Origin: Bacteroidota bacterium | Lineage (GTDB): Bacteria > Bacteroidota > Bacteroidia > Chitinophagales > Chitinophagaceae | NCBI GenBank assembly: GCA_018267955.1 | Contig: JAFDXL010000001.1 | Location: forward strand, 62,001-126,000 | DNA: 64,000 nt | Reading direction: 5' to 3' | Shown here: positions 46,885 to 63,092 of the stretch, one piece after another | Position numbering within the stretch: the stretch's first letter is position 1 | How the letters are laid out: the number at the start of each line of letters is the position of its first letter | Program-made: the position numbers and the translations under genes | Notes under the pieces: model-generated | Told to the model about the DNA's origin: nothing | Databases searched by the model: none | The model's input: only the letters and a program-made list of their open reading frames with translations

Positions 46885-47020
46885 GTAAGAAAAATGCGGC
46901 CATTTTGATGGTAAATGTAAAATTAATACCCTAAGGGTTGCCTATTTAACATTTAATATAGCTTAACATATACATATATTAATCTTACTTAAAAAAGAGG
47001 CTCAAAAATCTGTAACTAGC

Positions 47021-47050: not shown

Positions 47051-47088
47051 TTGCCTCTATTTTACAACATCCGAGTGATCGTTACAAT

Positions 47089-48141: not shown

Positions 48142-48197
48142 TATCAGGGGTCAAAAGCAGCACACACTGTTTTTGGCTTTTAGTTTTGATATAGCAT
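48142..48197. repeat. Semi-palindromic repeat in the nuoB-nuoC gap
   Basis: The 56-bp gap pairs TATCA...TCAAAAGC near its left end with GGCTTTTAGTTTTGATA near its right end, an imperfect inverted repeat related in style to the other nuo gap repeats. Confidence 0.4.
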
Positions 48198-48710
48198 ATG
48201 GCATTGACCAACGAAACGATACAACAAAAACTGTCTGAAAAATTCGGTGAGCAACTTACCGAGTGGCAGGAACCTTACGGCATGCTCACCTTCAGGGCGC
48301 CGGCAGAAATGAACCTGAAAGTGATGCAGCATCTGTATGATGACATGGGCTTCAGGTTTCTTACAGATCTTACAGCAGTGCATTACCCGCACAGTGTAAA
48401 TGAAGAATTGTGTGTTGTGTACCATATGCACAACCTGGTAGATAATGTAAGGCTACGTTTTAAAGTATTTGTACCTATCAGCAAACCCGATGTATTTACC
48501 GCTACACAGTTGTTCTCGGCAGCAAACTGGATGGAGCGGGAAGCATTTGACAACTTCGGTGTAAATTTTGTTGGCCACCCCGACCTCAGGCGCATTTTGA
48601 ATGTGGACGATATGGACTACTTCCCTATGCGCAAGGAATATCCCATGGAAGACCCTACACGTACAGACAAAGACGATGAAATGTTTGGACGTGGAGGAAC
48701 AGTTGTATAA
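48198..48710 (+). CDS. nuoC: NADH-quinone oxidoreductase subunit C
   Basis: A 170-residue peripheral subunit (30-kDa family). The signature is seen as WMEREAFDNFGVNFVGHPDL then RRILNVDDM with YPMEDP. Encoded separately from NuoD, unlike the NuoCD fusion of enterobacteria. Confidence 0.96.
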   Translation: MALTNETIQQKLSEKFGEQLTEWQEPYGMLTFRAPAEMNLKVMQHLYDDMGFRFLTDLTAVHYPHSVNEELCVVYHMHNLVDNVRLRFKVFVPISKPDVFTATQLFSAANWMEREAFDNFGVNFVGHPDLRRILNVDDMDYFPMRKEYPMEDPTRTDKDDEMFGRGGTVV

Positions 48711-48741
48711 TATATTTTGACCTTAAATTGATTTTAGACTA

Positions 48742-49983
48742 ATGTCTGAGCATCAACATCATATTCAACTGGCAGAGGAGTCACTGGCAAAGCAGACTAC
48801 TACGCTGAACCTGGGGCCTACGCACCCTGCCACGCACGGTATCTTCCAGAACATACTGGAGATAGACGGCGAAAAAGTTCTCAGTTCAGAACAAACTGTG
48901 GGTTACATCCACCGTGCGTTCGAGAAGATCGCGGAACGTCGTCCATACTATCAGATCACGCCACTTACAGACAGGCTTAACTATTGTTCCTCCCCCATTA
49001 ACAATATGGGCTGGCACATGACCATAGAAAAGCTGCTGGGCCTTAAACTGCCCAAGCGTGTAGAGTACATGCGTGTGATCATTATGGAACTGGCGCGTAT
49101 CGGCGACCACCTGATATGCAACTCTGTTGTAGCTGTAGATACGGGTGCGCTTACCGGTTTTACTTATGTATTCCAGTGGCGCGAGCTGATCTATGAAATA
49201 TATGAAGAAGTGTGCGGTAGCCGCCTTACTACCAATATTGGCCGTGTAGGTGGTTTCGAGCGCAACTTCTCAGATGTTGCCTGGCAGAAGCTGAGGAAAT
49301 TTATGGATGGCTTTCCGAAAGTGATGAAGGAATTCGAAGCGTTGCTGAACCGTAACCGCATCTTTATGGAGCGTTGCATAGGCGCGGGGCCGATCAATGC
49401 AGAGCGTGCACTCAACTATGGTTTTACAGGCCCTAACCTGCGAGCTGCAGGAGTGGATTATGACGTACGTGTAGCGCAGCCTTATTCATCTTACGAAGAT
49501 TTTGATTTTACAATACCTGTAGGTACTACGGGTGATGTGTATGATCGCTACATGGTTCGTAATGATGAGATCTGGCAGAGTTATAGCATCATACAGCAGG
49601 CAATAGCGAAGATCGAAGAGATAGAAAAAGCAGATCCTGCACAGAAGAATATCTTCTACGCACCGGAAGCAGATAAATTCCACTTGCCTGCTAAAGAAGA
49701 TGTGTATACCAAGATGGAAGCCCTGATCTACCACTTCAAGATGATCATGGGCGAGATAGAAGCGCCTCCGGGCGAGGTGTACCATGCAGTAGAAGGTGGT
49801 AATGGCGAACTTGGGTTCTACCTGATCAGTGATGGAGGAAGGACACCTTATCGCCTGCACTTCCGTCGTCCATGCTTTATTTATTACCAGGCATATCCTG
49901 AGATCATTAAGGACGGATTGCTGAGTGATGCGATCATCACATTAAGTAGTTTGAACGTAATTGCAGGAGAACTGGACGGATAA
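48742..49983 (+). CDS. nuoD: NADH-quinone oxidoreductase subunit D
   Basis: A 413-residue 49-kDa type subunit. It shows GPTHPATHGIF, the HRAFEKIAE quinone-site segment, LTDRLNYCSS, and the C-terminal segment PYRLHFRRPCF. With NuoB it builds the quinone-reducing chamber. It follows nuoC after 31 bp. Confidence 0.97.
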   Translation: MSEHQHHIQLAEESLAKQTTTLNLGPTHPATHGIFQNILEIDGEKVLSSEQTVGYIHRAFEKIAERRPYYQITPLTDRLNYCSSPINNMGWHMTIEKLLGLKLPKRVEYMRVIIMELARIGDHLICNSVVAVDTGALTGFTYVFQWRELIYEIYEEVCGSRLTTNIGRVGGFERNFSDVAWQKLRKFMDGFPKVMKEFEALLNRNRIFMERCIGAGPINAERALNYGFTGPNLRAAGVDYDVRVAQPYSSYEDFDFTIPVGTTGDVYDRYMVRNDEIWQSYSIIQQAIAKIEEIEKADPAQKNIFYAPEADKFHLPAKEDVYTKMEALIYHFKMIMGEIEAPPGEVYHAVEGGNGELGFYLISDGGRTPYRLHFRRPCFIYYQAYPEIIKDGLLSDAIITLSSLNVIAGELDG

Positions 49984-49995
49984 AACAGTTATAAA

Positions 49996-50493
49996 ATGAA
50001 ATTTTCGGAAGAAAAACTAAATAAAGCAAAAGAGATCATAGCACGCTACCCGGATGGGAAGCAAAAAAGTGCGCTGATACCTCTGTTGCACCTGGCGCAG
50101 GAAGAATTTGGCGGCTGGCTGGATGTACCTGCAATGGACTATGTGGCTGGGTTGCTGAACATCTTGCCGATAGAAGTGTACGAAGTAGCTACCTTCTATT
50201 CCATGTTCAACCTGAAGCCTGTTGGTAAATATATATTTGAAGTGTGCCGTACTGGTCCTTGTATGCTCAATGGCAGCGATGATATCATCGAGTATATCAA
50301 GGAAAAACTGAACATCCGCGAAGGGGAAACAACGCCTGATGGACTGTTTACCCTGAAGCCTGCAGAATGTCTGGGAGCATGTGGTTATGCCCCGATGATG
50401 CAGCTGGGCAAGCACTTCAGGGAGCATCTTACCAAAGAAAAAGTAGATGCAATTATAGACGAGTGCAGGAGAAATGCTGCGATAAATAACTAA
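49996..50493 (+). CDS. nuoE: NADH-quinone oxidoreductase subunit E
   Basis: A 165-residue thioredoxin-fold subunit with the 2Fe-2S cluster N1a ligands CRTGPC and CLGAC. It starts 12 bp after nuoD. In most genomes nuoF follows; here two other genes intervene. Confidence 0.96.
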   Translation: MKFSEEKLNKAKEIIARYPDGKQKSALIPLLHLAQEEFGGWLDVPAMDYVAGLLNILPIEVYEVATFYSMFNLKPVGKYIFEVCRTGPCMLNGSDDIIEYIKEKLNIREGETTPDGLFTLKPAECLGACGYAPMMQLGKHFREHLTKEKVDAIIDECRRNAAINN

Positions 50494-50497
50494 TGCT

Positions 50498-50902
50498 ATG
50501 GCGTACGATCTGGAATTGGAATTTGTGATACCGGGTACGCCGAAGCAAACAATGCAAATGCTGACAGACACGACATTGATAAGAAAATGGAGTGGTGAGG
50601 ACGCGGTACTGGAACCGCAGGTTGGTGGAAAATTCCAGATGTTTGACGGATGGGTAAGTGGCGAAGTGAAAAAGATAACGGATAAAGAGCTGGCTTACAG
50701 CTGGAAACCGGCAGAATGGGAAGAAAGCACAGCACCATCAGAAGTTCATTTTTTATTGAGTAGTGATAAAGAAGGCACTAAAGTGATATTGCATCATACG
50801 AACCTTCCTACGCAGGAAGAAGCGGATGAGCAAAAGCAGGGTTGGGATGATTACTTCTTCGGGCCGCTGGAGGAGTATATATACGCAACCAAACGATATT
50901 GA
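50498..50902 (+). CDS. SRPBCC/AHSA1-type START-like protein inside the nuo operon
   Basis: A 134-residue helix-grip protein. The beta-rich body includes LIRKWSGEDAVLEPQVGGKF and GEVKKITDKELAYSW, and the closing helix GWDDYFFGPLEEYI, as in AHSA1 domains (activator of Hsp90 ATPase homologue 1-like). Proteins of this fold bind hydrophobic ligands. It begins 4 bp after nuoE and ends 1 bp before the next gene, so it is plainly co-transcribed with nuo. No role in complex I is established; help in assembly or quinone handling would be speculation. Confidence 0.8.
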   Translation: MAYDLELEFVIPGTPKQTMQMLTDTTLIRKWSGEDAVLEPQVGGKFQMFDGWVSGEVKKITDKELAYSWKPAEWEESTAPSEVHFLLSSDKEGTKVILHHTNLPTQEEADEQKQGWDDYFFGPLEEYIYATKRY

Positions 50903-50903
50903 T

Positions 50904-51323
50904 ATGAGATATCTTGTATTGATCTCGTTGCTCTTTATTTATAGTTCTGTATCGGCACAAAGTGAAAGAAGTGCAGGTATCGCAGCAGATGGTTTTACAA
51001 ACGCCCTGGTAGACAGGGATACTGTAGAATTGAAGAAACTGCTGGATGATAAGCTGATCTACGGCCATTCAAACGGCTGGAAGCAATCGAAACGGGAACT
51101 TATAGAAGATCTGTACAATGGTAAGATCATCTACAAAAACATCAGTTCGACCGATCAGCAGATAACACTGGAAGGCAGTACGGCATGTGTGCGGGCAACG
51201 TCAGAAATAGATGTGGTGATGGAAGGTAAGCCGGTGCATTTTAAGTTAATGGTGTTGCAGGTGTGGATATGGAAGAATAAACAATGGAAACTGCTAAGCA
51301 GGCAGAGTACCAGGATTAATTAA
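50904..51323 (+). CDS. Secreted DUF4440/NTF2-like protein inside the nuo operon
   Basis: A 139-residue protein with a signal peptide MRYLVLISLLFIYSSVSAQ and an NTF2-like cone fold: helices around ADGFTNALVDRDTVELKKLL followed by strands LIYGHSNGW, CVRATSEIDVVM and WIWKNKQWKLLSRQSTRI. This is the DUF4440 pattern. Being exported, it cannot touch the cytosolic arm of complex I. ATG 50904 begins the signal peptide and lies 1 bp after the SRPBCC stop. Function unknown. Confidence 0.75.
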   Translation: MRYLVLISLLFIYSSVSAQSERSAGIAADGFTNALVDRDTVELKKLLDDKLIYGHSNGWKQSKRELIEDLYNGKIIYKNISSTDQQITLEGSTACVRATSEIDVVMEGKPVHFKLMVLQVWIWKNKQWKLLSRQSTRIN

Positions 51324-51390
51324 AAATTCAAAAGACAAAATTCAAAATGGTTTCACTTTTGACTTTTGACTTTTAACTTTTGACTTGAGA
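51324..51390. repeat. Heptad CTTTTGA repeat with opposed arm before nuoF
   Basis: The gap has TTCAAAA words on the left (51328-51348) and a tandem of four 7-bp CTTTTGA-like units on the right (about 51356-51385). The two sides are complementary, so the gap could form a hairpin. No coding capacity. Confidence 0.65.
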
Positions 51391-52743
51391 ATGAAATTAT
51401 TATTAGAACACGCACATGTTGAGGGTATTCGCTACTACGATGCCTACCGTAAAAACGGTGGTTATCGTGCAGTAGAGAAGGCGTTTAAGATGACACCCGA
51501 TGAGATAGTGGAGGAAGTGAAGAAGAGCGGCCTGCGCGGCCGTGGCGGCGCGGGTTTCCCTACAGGTATGAAATGGAGTTTCCTGGCCAAGCCGGAAGGA
51601 ATACCCCGTCACCTGGTGTGCAACGCGGATGAGTCAGAGCCCGGTACTTTCAAAGACCGCTACCTGATGGAGTTCATTCCGCACCTGCTGATCGAAGGCC
51701 TTATCGTGAGCAGCTTTGCATTGGGAAGTAATGCTACCTATATCTATATACGCGGTGAGTATGCATGGATCGTAGATATACTGGAGCAGGCAATTACAGA
51801 AGCAAAGAATAATGGCTGGCTGGGTAAAAACATCCTGAACAGCGGTTTTGATTGCGAAATATATGTGCAGCGTGGTGCAGGTGCTTACATCTGCGGTGAA
51901 GAAACAGCATTGATAGAATCACTGGAAGGTAAGCGTGGTAACCCACGTATCAAACCGCCATTCCCTGCCATACAGGGCCTATGGATGCGCCCGACTGTGG
52001 TGAACAACGTAGAAACATTGGCTGCCGTAGTACCTATTATGAATATAGGTGGCGAAGCCTATTCTAAAATAGGTGTAGGCCGCTCTACAGGTACTAAACT
52101 GTTATCTGTTTGTGGCAATGTAAAAAAGCCGGGCATCTACGAAATAGATATGACGCAATCAGTAGAAGAGTTCATCTTCTCTGATGAATACTGTGGTGGT
52201 ATTGCCAACGGTAAAAAACTGAAGGCTTGTATACCGGGCGGATCGTCCGTACCTATACTACCTGCTAACCTGCTGCTGAAAACGGCAAAAGGTGAAACAC
52301 GGTATATGAACTATGAAAGCCTGTCTGACGGGGGCTTTGCTACCGGTTCCATGATGGGGTCCGGTGGTTTTATAGTGTTTGATGAAGACCAATGCGTAGT
52401 TCGCCATACCATGACCCTGGCCCGCTTCTACAACCACGAGAGTTGCGGACAATGCAGTCCTTGTCGTGAAGGTACCGGCTGGATGTATAAAATACTGAAG
52501 AACATAGAATACGGAAAGGGCAAGATGAGCGATATAGACCTGTTGTGGGATATTCAGCGTAAGATAGAAGGTAATACTATCTGTCCGCTGGGTGATGCTG
52601 CCGCATGGCCTGTAGCTGCGGCCATCCGTCACTTCCGTGATGAATTTGAATGGCATGTACTGAACCCTGAAGAATCACAGAAAAGGAATTTTGGATTGGC
52701 CCATTACGCGGACCCAATTCACGTTCCGACTGAAACAGCATAG
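51391..52743 (+). CDS. nuoF: NADH-quinone oxidoreductase subunit F
   Basis: A 450-residue FMN and NADH-binding subunit: GLRGRGGAGFPTGMKW (NADH/FMN site), CNADESEPGTFKDR, GAGAYICGEETALIESLEG and the N3 cluster ligands ESCGQCSPCREGTGWM with a later Cys in NTICPLGDA. It is the electron entry point of the complex. ATG 51391 (MKLLLEHAH) is used, two codons inside the open frame and directly after the repeat. Confidence 0.97.
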   Translation: MKLLLEHAHVEGIRYYDAYRKNGGYRAVEKAFKMTPDEIVEEVKKSGLRGRGGAGFPTGMKWSFLAKPEGIPRHLVCNADESEPGTFKDRYLMEFIPHLLIEGLIVSSFALGSNATYIYIRGEYAWIVDILEQAITEAKNNGWLGKNILNSGFDCEIYVQRGAGAYICGEETALIESLEGKRGNPRIKPPFPAIQGLWMRPTVVNNVETLAAVVPIMNIGGEAYSKIGVGRSTGTKLLSVCGNVKKPGIYEIDMTQSVEEFIFSDEYCGGIANGKKLKACIPGGSSVPILPANLLLKTAKGETRYMNYESLSDGGFATGSMMGSGGFIVFDEDQCVVRHTMTLARFYNHESCGQCSPCREGTGWMYKILKNIEYGKGKMSDIDLLWDIQRKIEGNTICPLGDAAAWPVAAAIRHFRDEFEWHVLNPEESQKRNFGLAHYADPIHVPTETA

Positions 52744-52772
52744 TTTTTGATTTTTGAATTTTGACTTAGAAT
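52744..52772. repeat. TTTTTGAATTTTGA-type repeat between nuoF and nuoG
   Basis: The 29-bp gap is essentially three overlapping copies of a TTTTGA word (TTTTTGATTTTTGAATTTTG). Same family as the neighbouring gap repeats. Confidence 0.5.
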
Positions 52773-53861
52773 ATGTCAGAACAACCGAAGTTTAAAGTAA
52801 CGATCGATAATATTACGGTAGAAGTACCCGCAGGTACTACTATCCTCAACGCAGCACGCATGATTGGTGGTGATGTAACGCCGCCGGCTATGTGTTACTA
52901 CAGCAAGCTGGAAGGCAGCGGCGGTAAATGCCGTACCTGCCTGGTAGAGGTGAGCAAAGGTTCTGAAAAGGATCCGCGCCCCATGCCAAAGCTGGTGGCA
53001 AGCTGCCGTACTACCGTGATGGATGGCATGGAAGTGAAGAATATCACTTCTGATAAAGTGCTGGACGCACGCAAAGGTGTGGTAGAGATGCTGCTGATCA
53101 ATCACCCGCTGGATTGCCCTGTTTGCGACCAGGCCGGTGAATGCCATCTGCAGGACCTGAGCTACGAACATGGAGTTGCAGGTACAAGGTACGAGTTCGA
53201 CCGCCGCACATTTGAAAAAGAAGACATCGGTGATTATATACAATTGCACATGACGCGTTGCATCCTGTGCTATCGTTGTGTATTTACAGCAGATCAGCTT
53301 ACCAATAAAAGAGAGCATGGCATTCTGGAGCGTGGCGACCATGCTGAGATCAGCACATTGCTGGGCAAATCTTTGGATAACGAGTTCATTGGCAACGTAA
53401 TAGATGTTTGCCCGGTAGGTGCGCTTACAGATAAGACCTTCCGCTTTAAGAACCGTGTATGGTTTACCAAGCCGGTAGATGCACATCGTGATTGCCCTAC
53501 TTGTAGCGGTAAGGTGCGCTTGTGGATGCGCGGTGATGAAGTATTCCGCGTAACTGCACGCAAGGACAAATGGGGCGAAGTGGAAGAATGGATATGTAAC
53601 GACTGCCGCTTCCATAAAAAAGAAGCAAAAGACTGGGTGATAGAAGGACCATCAAGGATAGACAGGCACAGCGTAATATCACAGGGCCATTATGTAGATA
53701 CGGTGAAGCAGCCGGTATATATAGACAGGGTGATAGGAAAGAATCCGAAACTATTGCTGGATATACATAAAGTGAGTGATGTGAACAGGCCGGACGTAGA
53801 CCTTTCAAAAATAGAAGGGCCTGCGCACTCAGACGACTTTAAGAAGAATAAAGACAATTAA
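52773..53861 (+). CDS. nuoG: NADH-quinone oxidoreductase subunit G, short form
   Basis: A 362-residue subunit holding the N-terminal clusters: a 2Fe-2S ferredoxin domain (CYYSKLEGSGGKCRTC, later Cys in SCRTT), the His-ligated 4Fe-4S site (CDQAGECHLQDLSYEHG), a second 4Fe-4S site (CILCYRC ... CPVGAL), and the first part of the molybdopterin-type domain with CPTC and CNDC. It stops there: the large C-terminal domain of E. coli NuoG (over 900 residues) is missing. A short NuoG appears to be normal in Bacteroidota rather than a truncation; the end is a natural low-complexity tail. Confidence 0.92.
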   Translation: MSEQPKFKVTIDNITVEVPAGTTILNAARMIGGDVTPPAMCYYSKLEGSGGKCRTCLVEVSKGSEKDPRPMPKLVASCRTTVMDGMEVKNITSDKVLDARKGVVEMLLINHPLDCPVCDQAGECHLQDLSYEHGVAGTRYEFDRRTFEKEDIGDYIQLHMTRCILCYRCVFTADQLTNKREHGILERGDHAEISTLLGKSLDNEFIGNVIDVCPVGALTDKTFRFKNRVWFTKPVDAHRDCPTCSGKVRLWMRGDEVFRVTARKDKWGEVEEWICNDCRFHKKEAKDWVIEGPSRIDRHSVISQGHYVDTVKQPVYIDRVIGKNPKLLLDIHKVSDVNRPDVDLSKIEGPAHSDDFKKNKDN

Positions 53862-53893
53862 TTTTTTAACGAACTAATTACTTTTGCGCCGTT

Positions 53894-54964
53894 ATGCAAT
53901 TGTTGCAAGTTGATATTTGGTTTATCATTGAAAAGCTGGTACTGATCACGGTAATATTGCTGGGTTCATTAGGTATCGCTATGTATGCCACATGGGGCGA
54001 ACGTAAAGTCGCTGCCGTAATGCAGGATCGTATTGGCCCTGCCCGTGCGGGTTTGTTTGGATTGTTGCAACCGCTTGCAGACGGTGGTAAACTTTTCTTC
54101 AAAGAAGAGATCCTGCCCGACCGTTCTACCAAGTTCCTGTTCATTATGGGGCCTGCCCTTGCAATGCTCACTGCTTGTATGACCAGTGCGGTAGTTCCCT
54201 GGGGACCAGATTATGTTACCCAAACAGGCAGAGTGGTATCGCTGCAGGTAGCAGATATTAATATAGGTATCCTGTTTGTGTTTGGTGTGGTGAGCCTTGG
54301 TGTGTACGGTGTAATGCTGGGTGGCTGGGCTTCAAACAATAAATTCTCCCTGTTAAGTAGTATTCGTGCTGCGTCTCAGGCTATTTCTTATGAGTTGGCT
54401 ATGGGTATCAGCCTTGTTGCGCTGTTAATGATGACCGGTTCACTGAGCCTGCGTGAGATCGTATCACAGCAACATGGTTTCTGGCATGATGGCTACTTCA
54501 CCTGGAATTTCTTTAAGCAACCATTAGGCTTTTTAATATTCCTTACCTGCTCTTTTGCCGAACTGAACCGTGCACCTTTCGATCTTCCGGAGTGTGAAAG
54601 CGAATTGAACATGGGCTACCACCAGGAATATTCTTCTATGAAGCTAGGCTTCTTCCTGTTTGCTGAATACATCAACCTGTTTATCAGCTCTGCAATATTG
54701 GCAACATTGTTCTTCGGTGGTTACAACTTCCCATTCATGGACCAGGTGGCGGCGAGTGTATCTCCGCTGTTATTCACCATCATCTGTGTATTGGTGCTGC
54801 TGACTAAAATAGTTGGATTTATATTATTCTTTATGTTCGTACGCTGGACGCTGCCACGCTTCCGCTACGATCAATTAATGCGTTTAGGTTGGAAATCACT
54901 GATACCACTGGCATTGATAAACATGCTGATAACAGGTATCGTGGTATTGTGGGTGATCAAATAA
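53894..54964 (+). CDS. nuoH: NADH-quinone oxidoreductase subunit H
   Basis: A 356-residue membrane subunit with eight helices. It has the amphipathic quinone-channel segment ERKVAAVMQDRIGPARAG, FNEADRAPFDLPE-like motif here read as ELNRAPFDLPECESELNMGY, and MFVRWTLPRFRYDQLM. NuoH forms the quinone tunnel and links it to the proton channels. Confidence 0.97.
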   Translation: MQLLQVDIWFIIEKLVLITVILLGSLGIAMYATWGERKVAAVMQDRIGPARAGLFGLLQPLADGGKLFFKEEILPDRSTKFLFIMGPALAMLTACMTSAVVPWGPDYVTQTGRVVSLQVADINIGILFVFGVVSLGVYGVMLGGWASNNKFSLLSSIRAASQAISYELAMGISLVALLMMTGSLSLREIVSQQHGFWHDGYFTWNFFKQPLGFLIFLTCSFAELNRAPFDLPECESELNMGYHQEYSSMKLGFFLFAEYINLFISSAILATLFFGGYNFPFMDQVAASVSPLLFTIICVLVLLTKIVGFILFFMFVRWTLPRFRYDQLMRLGWKSLIPLALINMLITGIVVLWVIK

Positions 54965-54972
54965 TTTGAAAA

Positions 54973-55482
54973 ATGGAAAAACTGACAAACAGGGCTGCAC
55001 CGGTAAATCGCGATCCAATGACATTTGGAGAGAAGATATACCTGCCTGCTATAGCTAAAGGCCTTAGTATAACTATAGGACACATATTTAAAAAGAAGGC
55101 AACCGTAAGCTACCCGGAAGAAAAGCGTCCGTTTAGCCCGGTGTTCCGCGGATTGCATATCCTGAACCGTGATGAAGAAGGCCGCGAACGCTGTACTGCC
55201 TGTGGCCTGTGTGCAGTAGCTTGTCCTGCAGAAGCCATTACCATGGAAGCCGCAGAACGTAAACCGGGAGAAGAGCATCTGTACAGGGAAGAAAAATATG
55301 CTGCGAAGTACGAGATCAATATGCTGCGTTGCATATTCTGCGGCTATTGCGAAGAAGCTTGTCCTAAGGATGCTATTTACCTGTCAGAGACGATCATGCC
55401 AACTAACTACACAAGAGCAAGCTTCATTTATAAAAAAGAAGATCTGCTGATTCCTGATCCTAAAAATAAAGAAGCCAAATAA
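54973..55482 (+). CDS. nuoI: NADH-quinone oxidoreductase subunit I
   Basis: A 169-residue ferredoxin-like subunit with two 4Fe-4S sites (N6a, N6b): CTACGLCAVACPAEAI and CIFCGYCEEACPKDAI. It follows nuoH after 8 bp. Confidence 0.97.
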   Translation: MEKLTNRAAPVNRDPMTFGEKIYLPAIAKGLSITIGHIFKKKATVSYPEEKRPFSPVFRGLHILNRDEEGRERCTACGLCAVACPAEAITMEAAERKPGEEHLYREEKYAAKYEINMLRCIFCGYCEEACPKDAIYLSETIMPTNYTRASFIYKKEDLLIPDPKNKEAK

Positions 55483-55486
55483 GTAT

Positions 55487-55990
55487 ATGAGTTTATACCA
55501 AATCTGTTTCTGGGTTCTTACGGTTATGGCATTGGGTTGCGCGTTAGGCGTAATACTAAGCCGCAACCCTGTGAGCAGCGTATTGTTTCTCATAGCTACT
55601 TTCTTTGCAATATCCGGCCACTACCTGCTGATGAACGCGCAGTTCCTTGCTATCGTTAACATTATCGTTTATGCAGGTGCCATCATGGTATTGTTCCTCT
55701 TCGTTATCATGTTAATGAATCTTAATGCAGATACGGAACCGCAAAAGAACCGGCTGGTGCAGCTGGCGGGCGTTGTGTCGGGTGGAATATTATTCCTGGT
55801 GATACTGGCAGCATTGAGATCTTCCAGTGTCAATGTGCTGGAGCAGACACCTACCGATATAGGATTGATTAAAAATTTGGGTAAGACATTGTTCACACAA
55901 TTCGTCCTGCCTTTTGAAATAAGCAGTGTACTCTTTTTAAGTGCGATGATCGGTGCGGTAGTGATAGGTAAAAAAGAAGAAGTAGCCTGA
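55487..55990 (+). CDS. nuoJ: NADH-quinone oxidoreductase subunit J
   Basis: A 167-residue membrane subunit with five helices. The typical NPVSSVLFLIATFFAISGHY and VYAGAIMVLFLFVIMLMNL segments are seen, the latter with the pi-bulge helix. It follows nuoI after 4 bp. Confidence 0.96.
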   Translation: MSLYQICFWVLTVMALGCALGVILSRNPVSSVLFLIATFFAISGHYLLMNAQFLAIVNIIVYAGAIMVLFLFVIMLMNLNADTEPQKNRLVQLAGVVSGGILFLVILAALRSSSVNVLEQTPTDIGLIKNLGKTLFTQFVLPFEISSVLFLSAMIGAVVIGKKEEVA

Positions 55991-56024
55991 TTTTAAATAT
56001 TTGGTAAAAACTGACCGTAGATAA

Positions 56025-56324
56025 ATGCCGATACAGTATTATTTATTTCTGAGCATGGCGCTCTTTTGCATAGGCATCATGGGTACGCTCATGCGCCGCA
56101 ATGCCATTATCATCTTCATGTGTATAGAACTGATGCTGAATGCAGTGAACCTGTTGTTGGTAGCATTTTCAAAAATGCACAATGATGGCTCTGCACAGGT
56201 GTTCGTTTTCTTTAACATGGTGGTAGCAGCTGCAGAAGTAGCAGTGGGGCTGGCGATCATTGTAATGATGTATCGCAAGGTGCATTCGGTAGACATTAAT
56301 ATTTTGAATAGGCTGAAACACTAA
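56025..56324 (+). CDS. nuoK: NADH-quinone oxidoreductase subunit K
   Basis: A 99-residue three-helix subunit (MrpC-like) with the two conserved channel glutamates in [13 protein letters not shown] and [11 protein letters not shown]. It is followed not by nuoL but by a repeat and a four-helix-bundle gene. Confidence 0.97.
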
Positions 56325-56333
56325 GTCAAAAGC

Positions 56334-56753
56334 CAAAATTCAAAATTAAAAATGCAGGATGAAGTTCTTTATACAGTAGAAGAAGCCGAAAAGGTCTATA
56401 ACATTAAGCACAGAGCTTACCTGTTTGCAAAAAGCGTTGTGTTATATGTTAACGAAGTGAAGTTTGATAAGTTACATTTTTCTATGTTTGACCAATTGTT
56501 GCGAAGCGCAACATCCATCGGGGCAAACTTAGCAGAAGGTAGAGCAGGTGCTTCTAAAAACGATTTTTTAAAATATTATATCATTGGCCTTAAATCAGCT
56601 AATGAGACTAAATATTGGCTTTGTTTAATAAGAGATACATTAGGTTTGGATAAAAACAAGCTAAACGACTTACTAAATGAAGCAGATGAAATATCAAAAA
56701 TAATTGCGAGTATCATTATTACAACAAAAGGACAATAACACTTTTGAATTTTG
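56334..56753. repeat. 12-bp inverted repeat pair flanking the four-helix-bundle gene
   Basis: CAAAATTCAAAA at 56334-56345 and its exact reverse complement TTTTGAATTTTG at 56742-56753 bracket the gene at 56352-56738. A second right-hand copy (TTGAATTTTGAATTTG) follows to about 56773. The arms lie tight against the start and stop of the enclosed gene and against nuoK and nuoL. Confidence 0.6.
56352..56738 (+). CDS. Four-helix-bundle protein (23S rRNA IVP / Avd-like) inserted in the nuo operon
   Basis: A 128-residue all-helical protein of the S23/TIGR02436 family. Signature: QLLRSATSIGANLAEGRAGAS then KNDFLKYYIIGLKSANETKYW. Family members are encoded in 23S rRNA intervening sequences of some bacteria, and structural relatives (Avd) bind nucleic acid in diversity-generating retroelements; many stand-alone copies have no known role. 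Here it sits between nuoK and nuoL, same strand, A+T-rich against its neighbours, and enclosed by an inverted repeat. No reverse transcriptase is near. Start at 56352 (ATG) 27 bp after nuoK. It looks like a late arrival in a conserved operon. Confidence 0.85.
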   Translation: MQDEVLYTVEEAEKVYNIKHRAYLFAKSVVLYVNEVKFDKLHFSMFDQLLRSATSIGANLAEGRAGASKNDFLKYYIIGLKSANETKYWLCLIRDTLGLDKNKLNDLLNEADEISKIIASIIITTKGQ

Positions 56754-56777
56754 ATTCTTGAATTTTGAATTTGAAAA

Positions 56778-58673
56778 ATGACAAACTTAGTTTACTTAGT
56801 TCCTTTATTTCCGTTAATAGGTTTCCTGATCAACGGTCTTGGTTGGAGAAAGATCCCTAAAACTGCGGGTGGTGTAATTGGCAGCCTTGCGATACTGGCA
56901 TCTTTCTGTGTATCACTGGGTATATTCTTTGAAGTAAAAAGCACCGGTTCTACTACGGTAGTAAACCTGTTCGACTTTATTCAATCAGGCAAACTATATA
57001 TACCTTTTGCATTCCAGGTAGACAGTTTGTCTTCGCTGTTCCTGCTTATCATCACAGGTATCGGTTTCCTGATACACCTGTATTCTACATCCTATATGCA
57101 CGATGATGAGGGCATGGTAAAATACTTTGCCTACCTGAACCTGTTCGTATTCTCGATGTTGTTACTGGTATTAGGCGCTAACTACCTGGTAATGTTCATC
57201 GGCTGGGAAGGCGTAGGTCTTTGCTCTTACCTGCTGATCGGTTTCTGGTTCAAGAATCGAGACTATACAAATGCCGCTAAAAAGGCTTTCGTGATGAACC
57301 GCATCGGTGACCTGGGCTTTTTGGTGGGTATGTTATTGATACTGCTGAATTACGGTACCCTTTCTTACCAGCAATTCTTTGGCCAGCTAAGCAGTGGCCA
57401 GGTTGCGGTACCAGGTGCATTATATAATACAATTGCCATTTGCCTGTTTGTAGGTGCTATGGGTAAAAGTGCCCAGATACCTTTATATACATGGTTGCCA
57501 GACGCAATGGCGGGTCCGACACCGGTATCTGCACTGATACACGCTGCTACTATGGTTACTGCCGGTATCTATATGATAGCACGTAGTGCCGCATTGTACG
57601 ACCTGGCACCAATTGCGCAAAACCTGGTTGCTGTAATAGGTTTAGCAACTGCTTTGCTTGCGGCAACTATTGCGCTGTATCAAAATGATATTAAGAAAGT
57701 GCTGGCTTATTCTACTGTTAGCCAGCTCGGTTATATGTTCCTTGCATTGGGCGTAGGTGCTTATACCACCGGTATCTTCCACGTAATGACACACGCTTTC
57801 TTCAAAGCATTGTTGTTCCTGGGCGCAGGTAGCGTAATACACGCAATGGGCGGCGAGCAGGATATTAAATATATGGGTGGCCTTCGCAAAAAACTGCCCA
57901 TTACTTTTATCACGTTCCTGATTGGTGTTTTGGCCATTTCCGGTTTCCCGTTCACATCGGGCTTTGTTTCTAAAGACGAGATTTTGCTGGCAGCATTGCA
58001 GCACAATAAAATATACTTCTGGGTTGGAACATTTACTGCGGTGCTGACTGCTATCTATATGTTCCGCCTACTGATGCTGGTATTCTTCGGAAGTTTCCGC
58101 GGCACCGAAGATCAAAAACATCATTTACATGAATCTCCATGGCAAATGACCTTACCACTGATCGTTCTGGCTATACTTTCTTTAGTTGGCGGTTTTGTAC
58201 AGTTGCCTGAGTTATTTGGCGGACACGATTATCTAAACCAGTTCCTGGCAAAATCAGGTGTGCCTGCTTTGGTTCACGAAGAAGGTAGTTCCATGGTTAC
58301 ATCAGAATATTATCTGCTGGGTGGTACAGTCATTGGGCTGGCGATCATCATATTTGCAACCGCACGTTCATTCGCAGTTGATAAGTTTGAAGGCCGTTAT
58401 ACAGGACTTAAGAAATTCTTTGCTGATAAATGGTATATAGATGAGCTGTACGATGCGGTGATCGTACGCCCGCTGGAAGGCTTATCTAAAATATTGGATA
58501 AGTATGTAGAGCGTATGGGTATCGATGGCATTGTGAACGGCGTAGGTAAAACCGTACGCTGGGGAAGTGATCGTGTACGTTTGATACAAACGGGGCAGGT
58601 GGGCTTTTACATATTCGCTATGGTGATAGGTATTACCATCTTATTTGCACTAAGTTTTTTCTGGATTAGATAA
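56778..58673 (+). CDS. nuoL: NADH-quinone oxidoreductase subunit L
   Basis: A 631-residue Mrp-antiporter-type subunit with about 16 helices: GWEGVGLCSYLLIGFWF, the channel Lys/Glu motifs in LPDAMAGPTPVSALIHAATM, and the long lateral helix in the C-terminal part (about 520-600). It carries one of the three antiporter-like proton channels. Starts 39 bp after the four-helix-bundle gene. Confidence 0.97.
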   Translation: MTNLVYLVPLFPLIGFLINGLGWRKIPKTAGGVIGSLAILASFCVSLGIFFEVKSTGSTTVVNLFDFIQSGKLYIPFAFQVDSLSSLFLLIITGIGFLIHLYSTSYMHDDEGMVKYFAYLNLFVFSMLLLVLGANYLVMFIGWEGVGLCSYLLIGFWFKNRDYTNAAKKAFVMNRIGDLGFLVGMLLILLNYGTLSYQQFFGQLSSGQVAVPGALYNTIAICLFVGAMGKSAQIPLYTWLPDAMAGPTPVSALIHAATMVTAGIYMIARSAALYDLAPIAQNLVAVIGLATALLAATIALYQNDIKKVLAYSTVSQLGYMFLALGVGAYTTGIFHVMTHAFFKALLFLGAGSVIHAMGGEQDIKYMGGLRKKLPITFITFLIGVLAISGFPFTSGFVSKDEILLAALQHNKIYFWVGTFTAVLTAIYMFRLLMLVFFGSFRGTEDQKHHLHESPWQMTLPLIVLAILSLVGGFVQLPELFGGHDYLNQFLAKSGVPALVHEEGSSMVTSEYYLLGGTVIGLAIIIFATARSFAVDKFEGRYTGLKKFFADKWYIDELYDAVIVRPLEGLSKILDKYVERMGIDGIVNGVGKTVRWGSDRVRLIQTGQVGFYIFAMVIGITILFALSFFWIR

Positions 58674-58712
58674 TATTAATAGATAGCAACTGCAAACAAT
58701 TGCATTAGCATT

Positions 58713-60152
58713 ATGATTTTGACATTACTCATACTGGTTCCTTTAATAGCAGGCATTTTCAGCTTCATGGCAGGCAATGCTGCTAAGGGCCTGGCCTTGG
58801 TCAGCTCCCTGGTAACACTTGGAGTTGCTGCTTACGTTAGCATAGCAGGCCATGCCGAACCTTTGACATTCAACATGCCCTGGATCCCTACACTGGGTAC
58901 GCAAATAAGTTTACAGGCAGATGGTATGGCAGCCATGCTTTGCCTGCTCGTTGGCATAGTAATGCCGGTAATATTTATCACAAACTGGAATAAGGATGTA
59001 GAAAATCCTGCTTCCTTCTATGGCCTGATGCTGCTGGCACAAGCAGGTATTACGGGTGTATTCCTTGCTTATGATGCATTACTTTTCTACTTCTTCTGGG
59101 AGCTGGCGCTGATACCTGTTTATTTCCTTTGCTCGCGCTGGGGTGGCGAAAAGCGCATACAGGTAACGTTCAAATTTTTTGTGTACACATTCGTAGGTAG
59201 CCTTATCATGCTGGCAGCTATCATCTACCTGTCTATGCAAAATCCGGGTGCGAATGCTTATAGCTGGCCTAATATAGTACGTGCCGGGGCTTCTTTGGAT
59301 CCTGTAACACAGCAATGGCTTTTCTGGATGATCTTCATAGCCTTCGCTATCAAGATGCCGATATTCCCTTTCCATACATGGCAGCCCGATACTTATGAAC
59401 AAGCACCAACTTCTGTTACCATAGTGCTGAGTGCCCTGATGGTGAAGATGGGTCTGTTTGCGGTAGTTCGCTGGTTATTGCCTGTTGTTCCGGCCGGAGT
59501 AGCTTTCTGGAGCGATACCGTAATTATCATGTCTATCATCGGCATTGTATACGCATCGTTCATAGCTATTGTGCAAACTGACCTGAAGCGCCTGGTTGCA
59601 TATTCTTCGATAGCACACATGGGCCTGATGTCTGCAGCCGCTTTTTCTCAAAGCAATGTAGGTATGCATGGTTTGATGGTGCAGATGTTCAACCACGGTA
59701 TTAATATTACGGGTATGTGGCTGATCGTAAGTATGGTAGAACAGCGCTGGGGTACCCGCGATATGACCAAGCTGGGTGGTATGGCAAGTACAGCGCCACA
59801 AATGGCAATAGCTCTGGTGATCATTTCACTGGCCAACATTGCGCTGCCACTGACCAATGGTTTTGTGGGTGAGTTCATGCTGTTCAATGGTTTGTTCCAG
59901 GGCGTATCTAATTATCATATTACGTTTATGGTGGTTGCCGGTCTTGGAGTTATCCTCGGCGCTATCTATACACTGAACATGATTCAGAAATCTGCTTATG
60001 GCAATGCTACCGAAATGGTAATTGCAAAAGACCTGAGCCTGAATGAATATATAGGATTGGGAATTATCATCACGATCATACTGGTGCTGGGCGTATATCC
60101 TAAACCATTGCTGGATATGACAGCAAGTGTGGCAACGATGATAGTGCCATAA
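58713..60152 (+). CDS. nuoM: NADH-quinone oxidoreductase subunit M
   Basis: A 479-residue antiporter-like subunit with 14 helices: FFWELALIPVYFLCSRWGG with the key Glu, FPFHTWQPDTYEQAPTSVTI and AYSSIAHMGLMSAA. Proton channel of the membrane arm. Confidence 0.97.
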   Translation: MILTLLILVPLIAGIFSFMAGNAAKGLALVSSLVTLGVAAYVSIAGHAEPLTFNMPWIPTLGTQISLQADGMAAMLCLLVGIVMPVIFITNWNKDVENPASFYGLMLLAQAGITGVFLAYDALLFYFFWELALIPVYFLCSRWGGEKRIQVTFKFFVYTFVGSLIMLAAIIYLSMQNPGANAYSWPNIVRAGASLDPVTQQWLFWMIFIAFAIKMPIFPFHTWQPDTYEQAPTSVTIVLSALMVKMGLFAVVRWLLPVVPAGVAFWSDTVIIMSIIGIVYASFIAIVQTDLKRLVAYSSIAHMGLMSAAAFSQSNVGMHGLMVQMFNHGINITGMWLIVSMVEQRWGTRDMTKLGGMASTAPQMAIALVIISLANIALPLTNGFVGEFMLFNGLFQGVSNYHITFMVVAGLGVILGAIYTLNMIQKSAYGNATEMVIAKDLSLNEYIGLGIIITIILVLGVYPKPLLDMTASVATMIVP

Positions 60153-60241
60153 GGTATTGAGGAAGAGATTTTGTATAACAAGAAAATAATTAATTAAACA
60201 GTTGCCGTACAAAATGCGGCGACCGGTCAGATAAGAATAAT

Positions 60242-61621
60242 ATGAAGGCAATAATAGCTGCAACATTACTTGGCATCATCCTGATGTTTGCCGGACTGGC
60301 AACGAAGGACAAAAGATCCATTGCATCCATCGCGGTTGTGGGTTTTCTTTTGTTGCTGGGCGTAAATATATGGGAGCTGGCAACTACCTCGCCATCAGAG
60401 CCACAGGTGCTGTTTAACAACATGCTGCGCATAGACCGCTATGGTCTGTGGTTCAACCTGCTGATGACGGCCTGTACGCTGCTGTATGTAATGCTGGTAA
60501 ATAAGGACATACAACGTGTGGGTATGCATGTGGCAGAATACTTTGCCTTGATCGCTTTTATATTATGTGGTGTTTATTTGTTAAGCAGTTATAATAATGT
60601 ACTAATGCTCTTCATTGGTATTGAGATCATCTCTATACCTCAATACATATTGGCAGGTAGCGATAAACGTAATCTGAAGAGTAGTGAAGCATCTCTCAAA
60701 TACTTTTTGATGGGCTCTTTCTCAACCGGTATCCTGTTAATGGGTATAGTGCTGTTATATGGTGCAACGGGTACATTCAATATTGTAGAATATACTTTCC
60801 TGCAATCTGATTCTCTGAATCCGCTGGCGTTATCCGGTATTCTGTTCCTGATGGTCGCACTGTCCTTCAAGGTTTCTGCAGTGCCTATGCATATGTGGAC
60901 GCCGGACGTATACGATGGCTCTCCTACTCCGTTCACTGCTTTTATGGCTACGATCGTAAAAGCTGCTGCATTCCTGGCATTCATGCGTCTGTTTAGCGTA
61001 TCCTTCGGTTCGTTGAGCGATCACTGGATGATGATACTGGCTATTATTACAGCAGCCACTTTGTTTGTTGGTAATATCACAGCAGTATTCCAGCAAAGCG
61101 TAAAGCGTATGCTGGCATATTCCTCTATCGCGCAGGCTGGTTTCATGCTGTTTGCCATCATAGCAGTAAACGCTACTGCATGGCAGGGAATGATACTCTA
61201 CGCAGTTGCTTACAGTGTTGCTACAATAGGTATGTTCTCTGTACTGCTGAAGCTGAAAGATTATACTTACGATGGCTTTAACGGGCTTGCAAAAAGGAAC
61301 CCGGCATTGGCATTCTTTACTACTATCTTTTTATTGTCGCTTGCAGGTATACCACTTACAGGTGGCTTTATGGCAAAATACTTTGTATTAATGGCGGCTG
61401 TAAAACAAGGCAACTTGTTGTGGCTGGTAATATTCGCATTGTTGATGGCTGCAATCAGTGCCTACTATTATTTCCGTGTTATAATCGCTATGTACTTTAA
61501 ACAGGGTGAGCCGGAATTCAATTCAGAAGTAACGGGTACAGATAAGCTGCTGATGGCCATTACCTGTGCCCTGGTAATATTGATAGGCTGTGTACCGCAA
61601 TTGGTTTTAGCTAATATTTAA
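60242..61621 (+). CDS. nuoN: NADH-quinone oxidoreductase subunit N
   Basis: A 459-residue antiporter-like subunit with about 14 helices: FIGIEIISIPQYILAGSDKR, MHMWTPDVYDGSPTPFTAFM and AYSSIAQAGFMLFA. Last gene of the nuo operon, 89 bp after nuoM and followed by a strong terminator. Confidence 0.97.
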   Translation: MKAIIAATLLGIILMFAGLATKDKRSIASIAVVGFLLLLGVNIWELATTSPSEPQVLFNNMLRIDRYGLWFNLLMTACTLLYVMLVNKDIQRVGMHVAEYFALIAFILCGVYLLSSYNNVLMLFIGIEIISIPQYILAGSDKRNLKSSEASLKYFLMGSFSTGILLMGIVLLYGATGTFNIVEYTFLQSDSLNPLALSGILFLMVALSFKVSAVPMHMWTPDVYDGSPTPFTAFMATIVKAAAFLAFMRLFSVSFGSLSDHWMMILAIITAATLFVGNITAVFQQSVKRMLAYSSIAQAGFMLFAIIAVNATAWQGMILYAVAYSVATIGMFSVLLKLKDYTYDGFNGLAKRNPALAFFTTIFLLSLAGIPLTGGFMAKYFVLMAAVKQGNLLWLVIFALLMAAISAYYYFRVIIAMYFKQGEPEFNSEVTGTDKLLMAITCALVILIGCVPQLVLANI

Positions 61622-61636
61622 GTTATCCTGATAAAG

Positions 61637-61668
61637 AAAGCGGCGCTTAGATTTCTAAGCGCCGCTTT
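61637..61668. terminator. Bidirectional terminator at the end of the nuo operon
   Basis: Perfect 14-bp stem AAAGCGGCGCTTAG / CTAAGCGCCGCTTT with a 4-nt loop and T-run; also serves the convergent M64 gene. Confidence 0.93.
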
Positions 61669-61688
61669 TTAGTTAAGTTGATCTGTTA

Positions 61689-63092
61689 TTATTCTATAAT
61701 GATCCTTGCATCTACTACTACACCCTCACCACGCAGGCTGATATTATAAGTACCTGCAGCTAGTCCGCCGATGTTGATAGGTAGAGTCTGTTCACCTTTA
61801 GCGATACTCATTTTGCCTGATCCTACAACGCTACCGGTAATGCTGGTTATTGCATAATCGAGAGACGTTGCATTGGTGTTATTGTTGCAATACAGGTTCA
61901 CAGTATTTTTAGCCGGCACAGGATAGAAGCTGTAACTAAACCTGTTGTCCGCTACAATATTGCTTACCGTGCTCGCCCAATTCCGTTGTATAGTCCATTG
62001 CACGGAGAACATATACCCTTTCGCCGGGGTATAAGAACGCGACATCAGTGTAGTATCTGTTACGGTAGCAATAAGGGTATTAGCTCCAATGTTAAGCTGC
62101 GATTCATTAATGGAAATATTGGTATCCGTTGTGTTGATCGTATTGCCGTTCAATGTCCATTTATACTGCAATGTATTCGGGTTGGGTTTTACGGGCGTAA
62201 ATGAAAAACTCAGTGGTGTAGCAGAGCTCTGTATCTTACCGGTATTGGCAGGTATATAAGCATCTATCGGGTTCACCTTATCATAAATTCGGTCAATGAT
62301 ATTTTCCTTACACACGGCACAGAGCGGCACATTCAGAAAACGCATTTTACAGTTTTGATGCGGACGATACCAGGATGCTTCTACTCCGCTGGTACCATGT
62401 GCATAAATACCAACGCTGCCTGTTCCGATCCATTTATGCCATACATTGGTTACAGTGCTGTTGTCCTGTGTCATATTAGGATGCTCGCCCGGCATATTAT
62501 TCCAATATTCGTCCCACAGTTTGCCAAAGGTGTGTCCCAGTTCGTGTACTGCTGTTTCATTGGCAGATGAGTTGATGCTGAAAGTGATATAGTTGCCGCC
62601 CGTACCGCCATATTCAGGGTCGTTCACCAATACCATGGGCACATCATACATCGGGAAGTTGGCATTTAACACACTGAAAACACCGGAGCTATTCTGTGCC
62701 CATACCGCCCTGTGTACACCGCCATTATCGTAGGTAGATCTGAAGTAGGTATTATGAGATTCGATAGGCGACGCAGGTTCAGTTACATCGGTCGCGGTAC
62801 CAGGGTGTGTGGTGCCTGCTTCCGCGGATGGCACCTGTATGCTATATACGTTGAAGAATTTTGCATACTCTTTATACGGGCTTGCATTGAACACATAAGC
62901 CTGTATGCTCTTTACTTTGTCCTTGAAAGTATCAAGCTGGGATGATAAGAAACCATCGGGAAGTACCACGATATTAATACGGTTCGTATCGGGGCCGTTA
63001 ATATTAATGTTACTTACAGGAAACGTTTGAGCATTGCCTGCAGAAGCCAGCAAAATACCTGCTGCACACAACCATTGTAATTTTAAAAGCAT
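61689..63092 (-). CDS. M64-family surface metallopeptidase with type IX sorting domain
   Basis: A 467-residue exported protein, signal peptide about 1-21. The catalytic zinc motif is HELGHTFGKLWDEY (H183, E184, H187), with a preceding NRINIVVLPDGFL strand typical of the M64 (IgA peptidase) family. An Ig-like stretch (about 270-380) and a C-terminal sorting domain (about 390-467, FYPVPAKNTVNLYC to GTYNISLRGE) follow, so it should leave the cell by the type IX route and stay at the surface or be released. The clostridial founding member cuts IgA; here a nutritional or envelope role is more likely in a free-living organism. It lies 1 bp after the lipoprotein gene. Confidence 0.85.
   Translation of the reverse strand: MLLKLQWLCAAGILLASAGNAQTFPVSNININGPDTNRINIVVLPDGFLSSQLDTFKDKVKSIQAYVFNASPYKEYAKFFNVYSIQVPSAEAGTTHPGTATDVTEPASPIESHNTYFRSTYDNGGVHRAVWAQNSSGVFSVLNANFPMYDVPMVLVNDPEYGGTGGNYITFSINSSANETAVHELGHTFGKLWDEYWNNMPGEHPNMTQDNSTVTNVWHKWIGTGSVGIYAHGTSGVEASWYRPHQNCKMRFLNVPLCAVCKENIIDRIYDKVNPIDAYIPANTGKIQSSATPLSFSFTPVKPNPNTLQYKWTLNGNTINTTDTNISINESQLNIGANTLIATVTDTTLMSRSYTPAKGYMFSVQWTIQRNWASTVSNIVADNRFSYSFYPVPAKNTVNLYCNNNTNATSLDYAITSITGSVVGSGKMSIAKGEQTLPINIGGLAAGTYNISLRGEGVVVDARIIIE

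What the first reader, a model, noticed from the sequence alone, without database searches (positions are those of the whole stretch)
56325..56777. Four-helix-bundle gene enclosed by an inverted repeat inside the nuo operon: possible small mobile or domesticated unit
Seen: the gene at 56352-56738 interrupts the otherwise invariant nuoK-nuoL junction, is A+T-rich against its neighbours, and is bracketed by exact 12-bp inverted repeats (56334-56345 and 56742-56753) that hug its start and stop. Known: the family (23S rRNA IVP/S23, related to the nucleic-acid-binding Avd of diversity-generating retroelements) has many stand-alone copies without known function, and IVP genes occur in inserted sequences within rRNA genes. 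Inference: gene plus repeats may move or have moved as one cassette, with the protein or the hairpin arms recruiting a mobilising activity in trans. Empty-site-like repeats occur nearby (47482-47577, 51324-51390).
Basis: partly seen in the sequence, partly recalled or inferred. Interest (0 to 1): 0.75.

Follow-up and report, generated by a model that had tools for sequence, protein, structure and literature searches.

The report
Four-helix gene framed by matching heptads
A small gene lying between two respiratory-chain genes is framed by short repeated 7-letter DNA words, and across many bacteria each version of this gene has its own matching word, which suggests that gene and repeats form one slowly moving unit whose protein reads the repeats.

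Summary
In detail: a PF05635/TIGR02436 gene (23S rRNA intervening-sequence protein, IVP) lies between nuoK and nuoL, AT-rich, inside an inverted repeat with a 12-bp exact core. In the genus, 2 of 14 genomes carry it there; the nearest relative (98% NuoL identity) lacks it but has a different IVP at nuoF-nuoG.

The surprise is general. Of 195 IVP genes, 170 lie inside inverted repeats stronger than the 99th percentile of controls. The arms are degenerate tandem HEPTAMERS, and the heptamer goes with the IVP subfamily: protein similarity predicts arm similarity between unrelated loci (Mantel r 0.48, null maximum 0.07), while sharing a genome hardly does. Gene-less arrays of the window's heptamer are common in genomes with the cognate IVP (median 40.5 pattern hits against 1). 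Published TAACTGA repeats, whose spread had 'no mechanism evident', are one such arm class in Bacteroidota.

Best reading: a two-part cassette (binding protein plus cognate arrays) with the anatomy of an rRNA intervening sequence, mostly inherited vertically, occasionally relocated. Binding and movement are inferred; no enzyme is known.

The parts
56352..56738 (+). IVP (four-helix bundle) gene, 128 aa
   Evidence: PF05635 and TIGR02436 above cut-off; PDB 2rld E 2.6e-17; purifying selection in near pairs
56325..56351 (+). left arm: degenerate heptamer array NTNAAAA, beginning right after the nuoK stop codon
56742..56772 (+). right arm: the same heptamer inverted (TTTTNAN), ending just before the nuoL start codon
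47482..47574 (+). gene-less inverted array of the same class, nuoA-nuoB
   Evidence: RNA fold z -1.93
51321..51390 (+). gene-less inverted array of the same class, upstream of nuoF
   Evidence: RNA fold z -1.54
52744..52769 (+). single right-type array between nuoF and nuoG; in G195, G199 and (broken) G169 an IVP gene sits at this junction
48142..48197 (+). weak gene-less inverted array, nuoB-nuoC
   Evidence: by eye

Best explanation
The thing is a small two-part cassette: an IVP gene plus two inward-pointing arrays of a degenerate heptamer that is specific to that IVP lineage. Shown: the arms exist, are heptameric, go with the protein lineage and not with the host genome, and recur without the gene between other genes. 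Inferred: the pentameric four-helix-bundle protein binds its own heptamer arrays (as DNA, or as RNA in the transcript), and this recognition is why gene and arrays stay together. The cassette lives in gaps between genes, beginning at the upstream stop codon and ending at the downstream start codon, so that it spares its hosts; it is usually inherited in place, is lost leaving one array or a gene-less pair behind, and now and then relocates or is replaced at junctions that carry arrays of its class. The movement step must use an enzyme supplied in trans or host recombination between arrays, because the cassette encodes no catalytic domain. Its anatomy (IVP gene in the loop of a stem) is that of the known intervening sequences of rRNA genes, which would then be cassettes that landed in rRNA.
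For: 170 of 195 IVP genes (190 loci; includes one duplicated genome, L042/L053) exceed the 99th control percentile for flanking inverted repeats. In an unbiased scan of 2,343 ORFs up to 350 aa, 64 of the 75 ORFs enclosed by strong repeats are IVPs. Arms have period 7 (self-match 0.68 at 7, 0.67 at 14, shuffled 0.375; best period 7 or 14 in 257 of 306 arms, 8 or 15 in 39). Protein identity against arm similarity: r = 0.48 over 11,592 pairs outside shared synteny and outside the nuo operon, maximum of 1,000 permutations 0.07; one element per synteny group, n = 40, r = 0.53, null maximum 0.15. Different IVPs in one genome: arm similarity 0.25 (37 pairs); dissimilar IVPs in different genomes 0.23; similar IVPs (>=60%) at unrelated places of different genomes 0.46 (37 pairs). 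The window subfamily keeps the NTNAAAA heptamer in Chitinophagaceae, Sphingobacteriaceae, Patescibacteria, WOR-3 and Nitrospirae loci. Plasmid-borne IVPs: 20 of 22 fetched (of 46 records) have inverted arms. Pattern hits for the window heptamer: median 40.5 in 22 genomes with a close IVP, 1 in 169 others, p = 5e-12. nuoF-nuoG holds two IVP lineages only 41-50% identical, both with TTTTGAC-type arms. dN/dS 0.02-0.25 in 11 near pairs.
Against: No binding was tested. At nuoF-nuoG inheritance is mainly vertical (r = 0.73; 2 junction changes), so movement is rare and no recent jump (near-identical copies at two places) was seen. Some genomes have hundreds of pattern hits without a close IVP (G009 557, G055 264, G026 252, G016 149). 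The array-IVP association is weak for a second class (AAGTWDT) once the cassettes' own arms are discounted (9 of 21 against 26 of 170, p = 0.005). Within a class an arm matches its own partner only somewhat better than others (own partner best in 4 of 78; 1 of 65 to 4 of 6 by class), so strict base pairing is not strongly kept. RNA folding of the gene-less arrays is only modestly better than shuffles (z -1.5 and -1.9). One plasmid IVP has direct, not inverted, arrays (L305) and one has no clear arms (L315).
Confidence: 0.6

Rival explanations
1. Post-transcriptional regulator: the IVP is an RNA-binding protein; the arrays before start codons and after stop codons are its binding sites in messages; the copy beside the IVP gene gives autoregulation and the scattered arrays are a regulon.
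For: Arrays abut start and stop codons (seen by eye); the protein is under purifying selection; MacGregor 2015 (PMC4679880; abstract, section 12 and passages seen) proposed translational regulation for TAACTGA arrays.
Against: Genomes with hundreds of pattern hits and no close IVP; arrays and IVPs are present or absent at the same junction among congeners; many lineages with different heptamers coexist, also on plasmids. It does not by itself explain relocation, and is not exclusive of the cassette reading.
Confidence: 0.25
2. Slippage only: heptamer arrays are ordinary unstable tandem repeats that collect in spacers, and IVP genes lie beside them by chance or because both tolerate spacers.
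For: Heptamer repeats are over-represented in several genomes and slippage was suggested (PMC4692102, passages seen).
Against: 64 of 75 strongly enclosed ORFs are IVPs; arm class follows the protein lineage and not the genome; inverted arrangement with inward polarity; reversed-pattern control 0 in this genome against 34 hits.
Confidence: 0.08
3. Resident operon gene: the IVP is a domesticated accessory of the nuo operon with a local function, and the hairpin is a processing site.
For: 59 of 79 relatives sit at nuoF-nuoG, with near-vertical inheritance.
Against: 12 of 79 relatives lie outside nuo, others at nuoK-nuoL or nuoA-nuoB; 12 of 14 congeners lack it at nuoK-nuoL and two use another lineage at nuoF-nuoG; the same architecture occurs in unrelated operons and in cas loci.
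Confidence: 0.07

Closest known systems
rRNA intervening sequences (IVS) with an S23/IVP ORF, e.g. Coxiella 23S rRNA helix 45 (PMC4990558, passages seen)
   Same: IVP-family ORF in the loop of a stem of about 28 bp made by terminal inverted repeats; AT-rich; sporadic distribution, horizontal transfer suggested
   Different: Sits between protein genes, not in rRNA; arms are tandem heptamers specific to the IVP lineage; gene-less arrays elsewhere in the genome; the gene is under purifying selection here, whereas the Coxiella ORF is described as decaying
TAACTGA heptamer direct repeats of Beggiatoaceae, Cyanobacteria and Bacteroidetes (MacGregor 2015, PMC4679880; abstract, section 12 and passages seen)
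   Same: Intergenic heptamer arrays close to start codons; patchy, apparently horizontal distribution; here the same heptamer (TAACTGA, or TAACTGC) flanks IVP genes in 4 Bacteroidota genomes
   Different: That paper names no partner gene of this family (S23, four helix, intervening: 0 hits in its main text); the window's heptamer is a different class
GGGAATC / GGGGA(T/C)T heptamer repeats of Xanthomonas and Nostoc (PMC4692102, passages seen)
   Same: Heptameric intergenic arrays, location conserved while length and sequence vary
   Different: No link to an IVP gene made there (S23, four helix: 0 hits); not tested here
Avd of diversity-generating retroelements (PMC10053308, passages seen)
   Same: Homologous four-helix-bundle family (PF05635 / cd16375)
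   Different: No reverse transcriptase near the window; the only RVT_1 hit of this genome is on another contig
MITEs and other gene-less derivatives of transposons (recalled)
   Same: Gene-bearing and gene-less copies with shared ends
   Different: No transposase, ends differ between lineages, no target-site duplication seen

Membership tests
PF05635 / TIGR02436 23S rRNA intervening-sequence protein | profile match above the curated cut-off | tested here: met
   82.5 bits (cut-off 33.8) and 89 bits (cut-off 24)
PF05635 / TIGR02436 23S rRNA intervening-sequence protein | homopentamer of four-helix bundles | not tested
   Sequence match to PDB 2rld, E 2.6e-17; no model was made; the pentamer is known from the literature on 2GSC (reference seen)
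rRNA intervening sequence (IVS) | IVP ORF inside a stem formed by terminal inverted repeats | tested here: met
rRNA intervening sequence (IVS) | located inside a 16S or 23S rRNA gene | tested here: not met
   between nuoK and nuoL; no Rfam family at gathering score in 46800-62000
rRNA intervening sequence (IVS) | excised from the transcript by RNase III | not testable with these tools
   needs RNA
Transposon / insertion sequence / MITE | transposase in the unit | tested here: not met
   the only gene in the unit is the IVP
Transposon / insertion sequence / MITE | target-site duplication and shared terminal repeats | tested here: inconclusive
   no duplication seen by eye between occupied and empty nuoK-nuoL; ends shared within a protein lineage only
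Diversity-generating retroelement (Avd) | reverse transcriptase with template and variable repeats nearby | tested here: not met
   one RVT_1 in the genome, on contig C8; the window is on C2
Published TAACTGA-type heptamer arrays | intergenic tandem heptamers abutting start codons | tested here: met
   period 7; arrays beside start and stop codons by eye; heptamer itself differs

The most novel reading that the evidence does not exclude
A previously unrecognised class of selfish genetic unit, found in at least Bacteroidota, Cyanobacteria, Patescibacteria and others: a non-catalytic four-helix-bundle protein and a lineage-specific heptamer code that co-evolve, with the arrays seeding hundreds of gene-less copies in trans. 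Heptamer repeats described piecemeal in bacteria (TAACTGA, perhaps GGGAATC and GGGGATT) and the intervening sequences of rRNA would be two faces of it.
Probability: 0.4. Interest if true: 0.9.

Novelty: new variant of a known kind. Interest (0 to 1): 0.8.

Why it matters
PF05635 is a large family of unknown function, and heptameric repeats are a known but unexplained excess in many bacterial genomes. A lineage-by-lineage match between the two gives the family a testable ligand (its own heptamer), offers a partner and a vehicle for TAACTGA-type repeats whose spread was reported without a mechanism, and would make rRNA intervening sequences a special case of a wider element. It also offers a natural set of co-varying protein-sequence and recognition-sequence pairs from which a recognition code could be read.

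Tried and rejected
Rejected: one conserved terminal repeat for all IVP genes (arms differ by lineage). Rejected: arms as a genome-specific repeat (same-genome pairs 0.25 against 0.23 baseline). Rejected: the own arm partner as generally the single best match (51 of 114 outside the window subfamily; 4 of 78 inside it): class polarity matters more than exact pairing. Considered and left open: DNA or RNA as the ligand. Looked for and not found: an IVP match in the phage collection, a known Rfam family over the nuo operon, a paper linking IVP genes to heptamer arrays (search listings; open-access PMC only, titles and abstract starts seen). A second class tested for gene-less arrays gave only weak support after discounting the cassettes' own arms, and its reversed-pattern control is not zero (up to 37 hits, G016; the reversed word resembles the TTTTGAA class). 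Covariation counting and structure prediction were not run.

Limits of the samples: the family sample is 195 genomes, and I took loci only for the best-scoring matches (30 with loci plus 80 fetched, of a list cut at about 150 rows), so high-scoring IVPs are over-represented; one search kept the best 80 hits (79 loci). In one search three of 198 hits were dropped for short flanks; only elements with a repeat score over 25 entered (167, one per locus, duplicate L053 dropped). Pattern counts are overlapping hits, not separate arrays, and include the IVP cassettes' own arms. In one search six genomes with weaker IVP matches (76-105 bits) were counted as 'without'. The trees are quick trees on 130 columns; one search used two wrongly framed rows (G195, G199) and was replaced.

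Full report
What is in the window. The gene at 56352-56738 is a 128-aa member of PF05635/TIGR02436, nearest solved structure 2rld. It starts 27 nt after the nuoK stop codon and ends 39 nt before the nuoL start. The gene is AT-rich (GC 32.8%) against nuoK 42.7% and nuoL 44.1%. By itself this repeat would be expected about once in 1,000 control window pairs.

The junction in relatives. Of 15 genomes of the genus 14 gave a nuoL hit. Two carry the gene at nuoK-nuoL, this one and G169 (78% identical IVP); 12 do not. G195, the nearest by NuoL (98%), has a plain short spacer there. At nuoF-nuoG the picture reverses: G195 and G199 carry an intact IVP, G169 one with an internal TGA, eight (this genome included) only a single right-type array directly after the nuoF stop codon, one a weak trace and two none. 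The G195/G199 genes are only 41-50% identical to the other nuo-operon IVPs compared and group with IVPs from Patescibacteria and others (SH-aLRT 96-99, quick tree), so the same junction has been used by two separate lineages with arms of the same kind.

Where relatives of the window gene sit. A scan of one genome per species gave 79 loci: 59 at nuoF-nuoG (in two of them only nuoG is seen, at a contig start), 3 at nuoK-nuoL, 5 at nuoA-nuoB and 12 outside the nuo operon; within nuo always in the direction of the operon. At nuoF-nuoG IVP identity follows NuoF+NuoG identity (51 loci, r = 0.73, null maximum 0.14), and the tree needs at least 2 changes of junction. So long residence with rare relocation, not active hopping.

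Arms are general. IVP genes occur in 150 of 195 genomes of the family, up to 17 per genome. I extracted 195 IVP genes with enough flank (one genome is in twice as L042 and L053, and five loci give two hits). 170 exceed the 99th percentile of 1,750 control window pairs from the same loci and spacing, 180 the 95th, 45 the highest control. Outside the window's subfamily it is 96 of 114. In an unbiased scan of 846 kb, 2,343 ORFs of up to 350 aa, 75 ORFs were enclosed by strong repeats and 64 of these were IVPs; the rest were nuo genes lying between two arrays, a DUF559 gene, and a few others in Patescibacteria and Ignavibacteria. On plasmids, 22 of 46 records with a match were read (20 Cyanobacteria, Azospirillum, Gemmatirosa): 20 have inverted arms such as GGGAACA, GGTGACA, GGAGTCA; L305 has direct arrays and L315 none clear; several cyanobacterial loci share a context and are not independent.

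The arms are heptamers. Self-match of the arms peaks at 7 (0.68) and 14 (0.67) against 0.375 in shuffles; the best period is 7 or 14 in 257 of 306 arms and 8 or 15 in 39.

The heptamer belongs to the protein lineage. The window's subfamily keeps the same word in Chitinophagaceae, Sphingobacteriaceae and in loci labelled Patescibacteria, WOR-3 and Nitrospirae. For 167 elements, protein identity and arm similarity correlate at r = 0.625 over non-syntenic pairs (null maximum 0.073); excluding also all nuo-nuo pairs and transitive synteny, r = 0.48 over 11,592 pairs (maximum of 1,000 permutations 0.07); with one element per synteny group, n = 40, r = 0.53 (null maximum 0.15). Host genome does not explain it: 37 same-genome pairs have mean arm similarity 0.25, 3,813 pairs of dissimilar IVPs in different genomes 0.23, and 37 pairs of similar IVPs at unrelated places in different genomes 0.46. 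The three IVP genes of this genome have three different arm classes.

Is it base pairing or a motif? Within a class an arm fits its own partner somewhat better than another element's (normalised rank 0.10 to 0.39 where 0.5 is chance), but the own partner is seldom the best (4 of 78). RNA folds of the two gene-less arrays have z -1.9 and -1.5, an artificial strand of the joined window arms -2.6. A polar recognition motif facing inward fits better than a strictly kept hairpin.

Gene-less arrays. The pattern (DTHAAAA)3 has 34 overlapping hits in this genome, its reversed control none. By eye, many are single arrays directly before a start codon or after a stop codon, others are inverted pairs. 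Over 191 genomes of the family, 22 with a close IVP (over 130 bits) have a median of 40.5 hits (2 to 428), the other 169 a median of 1 (p = 5e-12); at least 5 hits in 21 of 22 against 43 of 169. Against a simple dependence: G009 (557), G055 (264), G026 (252) and G016 (149) have no close IVP. 6 of 29 IVP matches in that search contain internal stops, so decay is common. For the AAGTWDT class the association is weak once own arms are discounted.

Link to published repeats. MacGregor (PMC4679880; abstract, section 12 and passages seen) described TAACTGA heptamer arrays, mostly just upstream of start codons in one genome, patchily in Beggiatoaceae, Cyanobacteria and Bacteroidetes, and wrote that no mechanism of transmission is evident. 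Here 22 of 395 Bacteroidota genomes have (TAACTGN)4. In G507 an IVP gene is followed at once by nine TAACTG units, in G327 one is preceded by the inverted array, and in G460 and G358 TAACTGC arrays lie beside an IVP, the G358 gene with two internal stops. Of the 22 array genomes 13 have an IVP like that of G507 (E up to 1e-25), against 51 of the other 368 (Fisher p = 3e-6); of the 8 matches above 129 bits 6 are in array genomes, G321 and G324 not. As identity to that IVP falls, the arms change from CAGTTA through CAGTGA and CAGTATG to AATTAGG; 24 of the 30 loci have a repeat score over 25. For the other 9 array genomes the arrays may be ordinary tandem repeats.

Function. In 11 hand-picked near pairs dN/dS is 0.02 to 0.25, and between the two nuoK-nuoL genes dN is 0.14 with synonymous sites near saturation: the protein is kept. 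No catalytic domain, no transposase in the unit, no reverse transcriptase on this contig. I commit to: protein binds its own arrays (likely), unit moves rarely with help in trans or by recombination between arrays (less certain).

Comparison. An IVP ORF within a stem of about 28 bp is what the Coxiella 23S rRNA intervening sequence looks like, where RNase III cuts the stem (PMC4990558, passages). IVP ORFs in rRNA insertions of CPR bacteria (PMC11270868, passages) and in cas loci (PMC3936711, passages) are known; three of the plasmid loci here are also in cas loci. Lineage-specific heptamer arms were not mentioned in the passages I saw nor in the listings of the ten paper searches. I file it as a new variant of a known kind (intervening-sequence-like unit) and keep the bolder reading as the novel case.

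Noticed in passing
L249 (G198, nuoJ-nuoK) and L054:3248-3613: A DUF559 gene (PF04480, 114.6 and 107.9 bits) enclosed by a different palindromic repeat (CCCCTAAAGGGG type); gene-less forms of that repeat lie at nuoK-nuoL in G196, G198, G204: a possible second gene-plus-hairpin unit.
   Followed up: partly
L244 (G196), nuoG-nuoH: About 620 nt insert with two ORFs that I read, from memory of the families, as a nucleotidyltransferase plus HEPN-type pair, without a hairpin; not tested.
   Followed up: no
window 50498-51323: Two extra ORFs between nuoE and nuoF; the first matches only in 5 of the 14 congeneric regions (G000, G195, G204, G205, G206), the second in all 14.
   Followed up: no
L305, L308, L309: Plasmid IVP genes inside cas loci (cas6-IVP-cas4 twice, cas10-IVP-cmr3), one with direct instead of inverted arrays.
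   Followed up: partly
G009, G055, G026, G016: 149 to 557 overlapping hits of the window heptamer pattern per genome without a close IVP.
   Followed up: no
L008, L010, L011, L012, L017, L019, L020: IVP with AAGTTAT arms at the same place between two genes that I read as argC and argD in several genera (gene names from memory).
   Followed up: partly
L357 (G000:C8:100043-100603): The only reverse-transcriptase domain found in this genome, on the contig that also carries its third IVP about 48 kb away.
   Followed up: no
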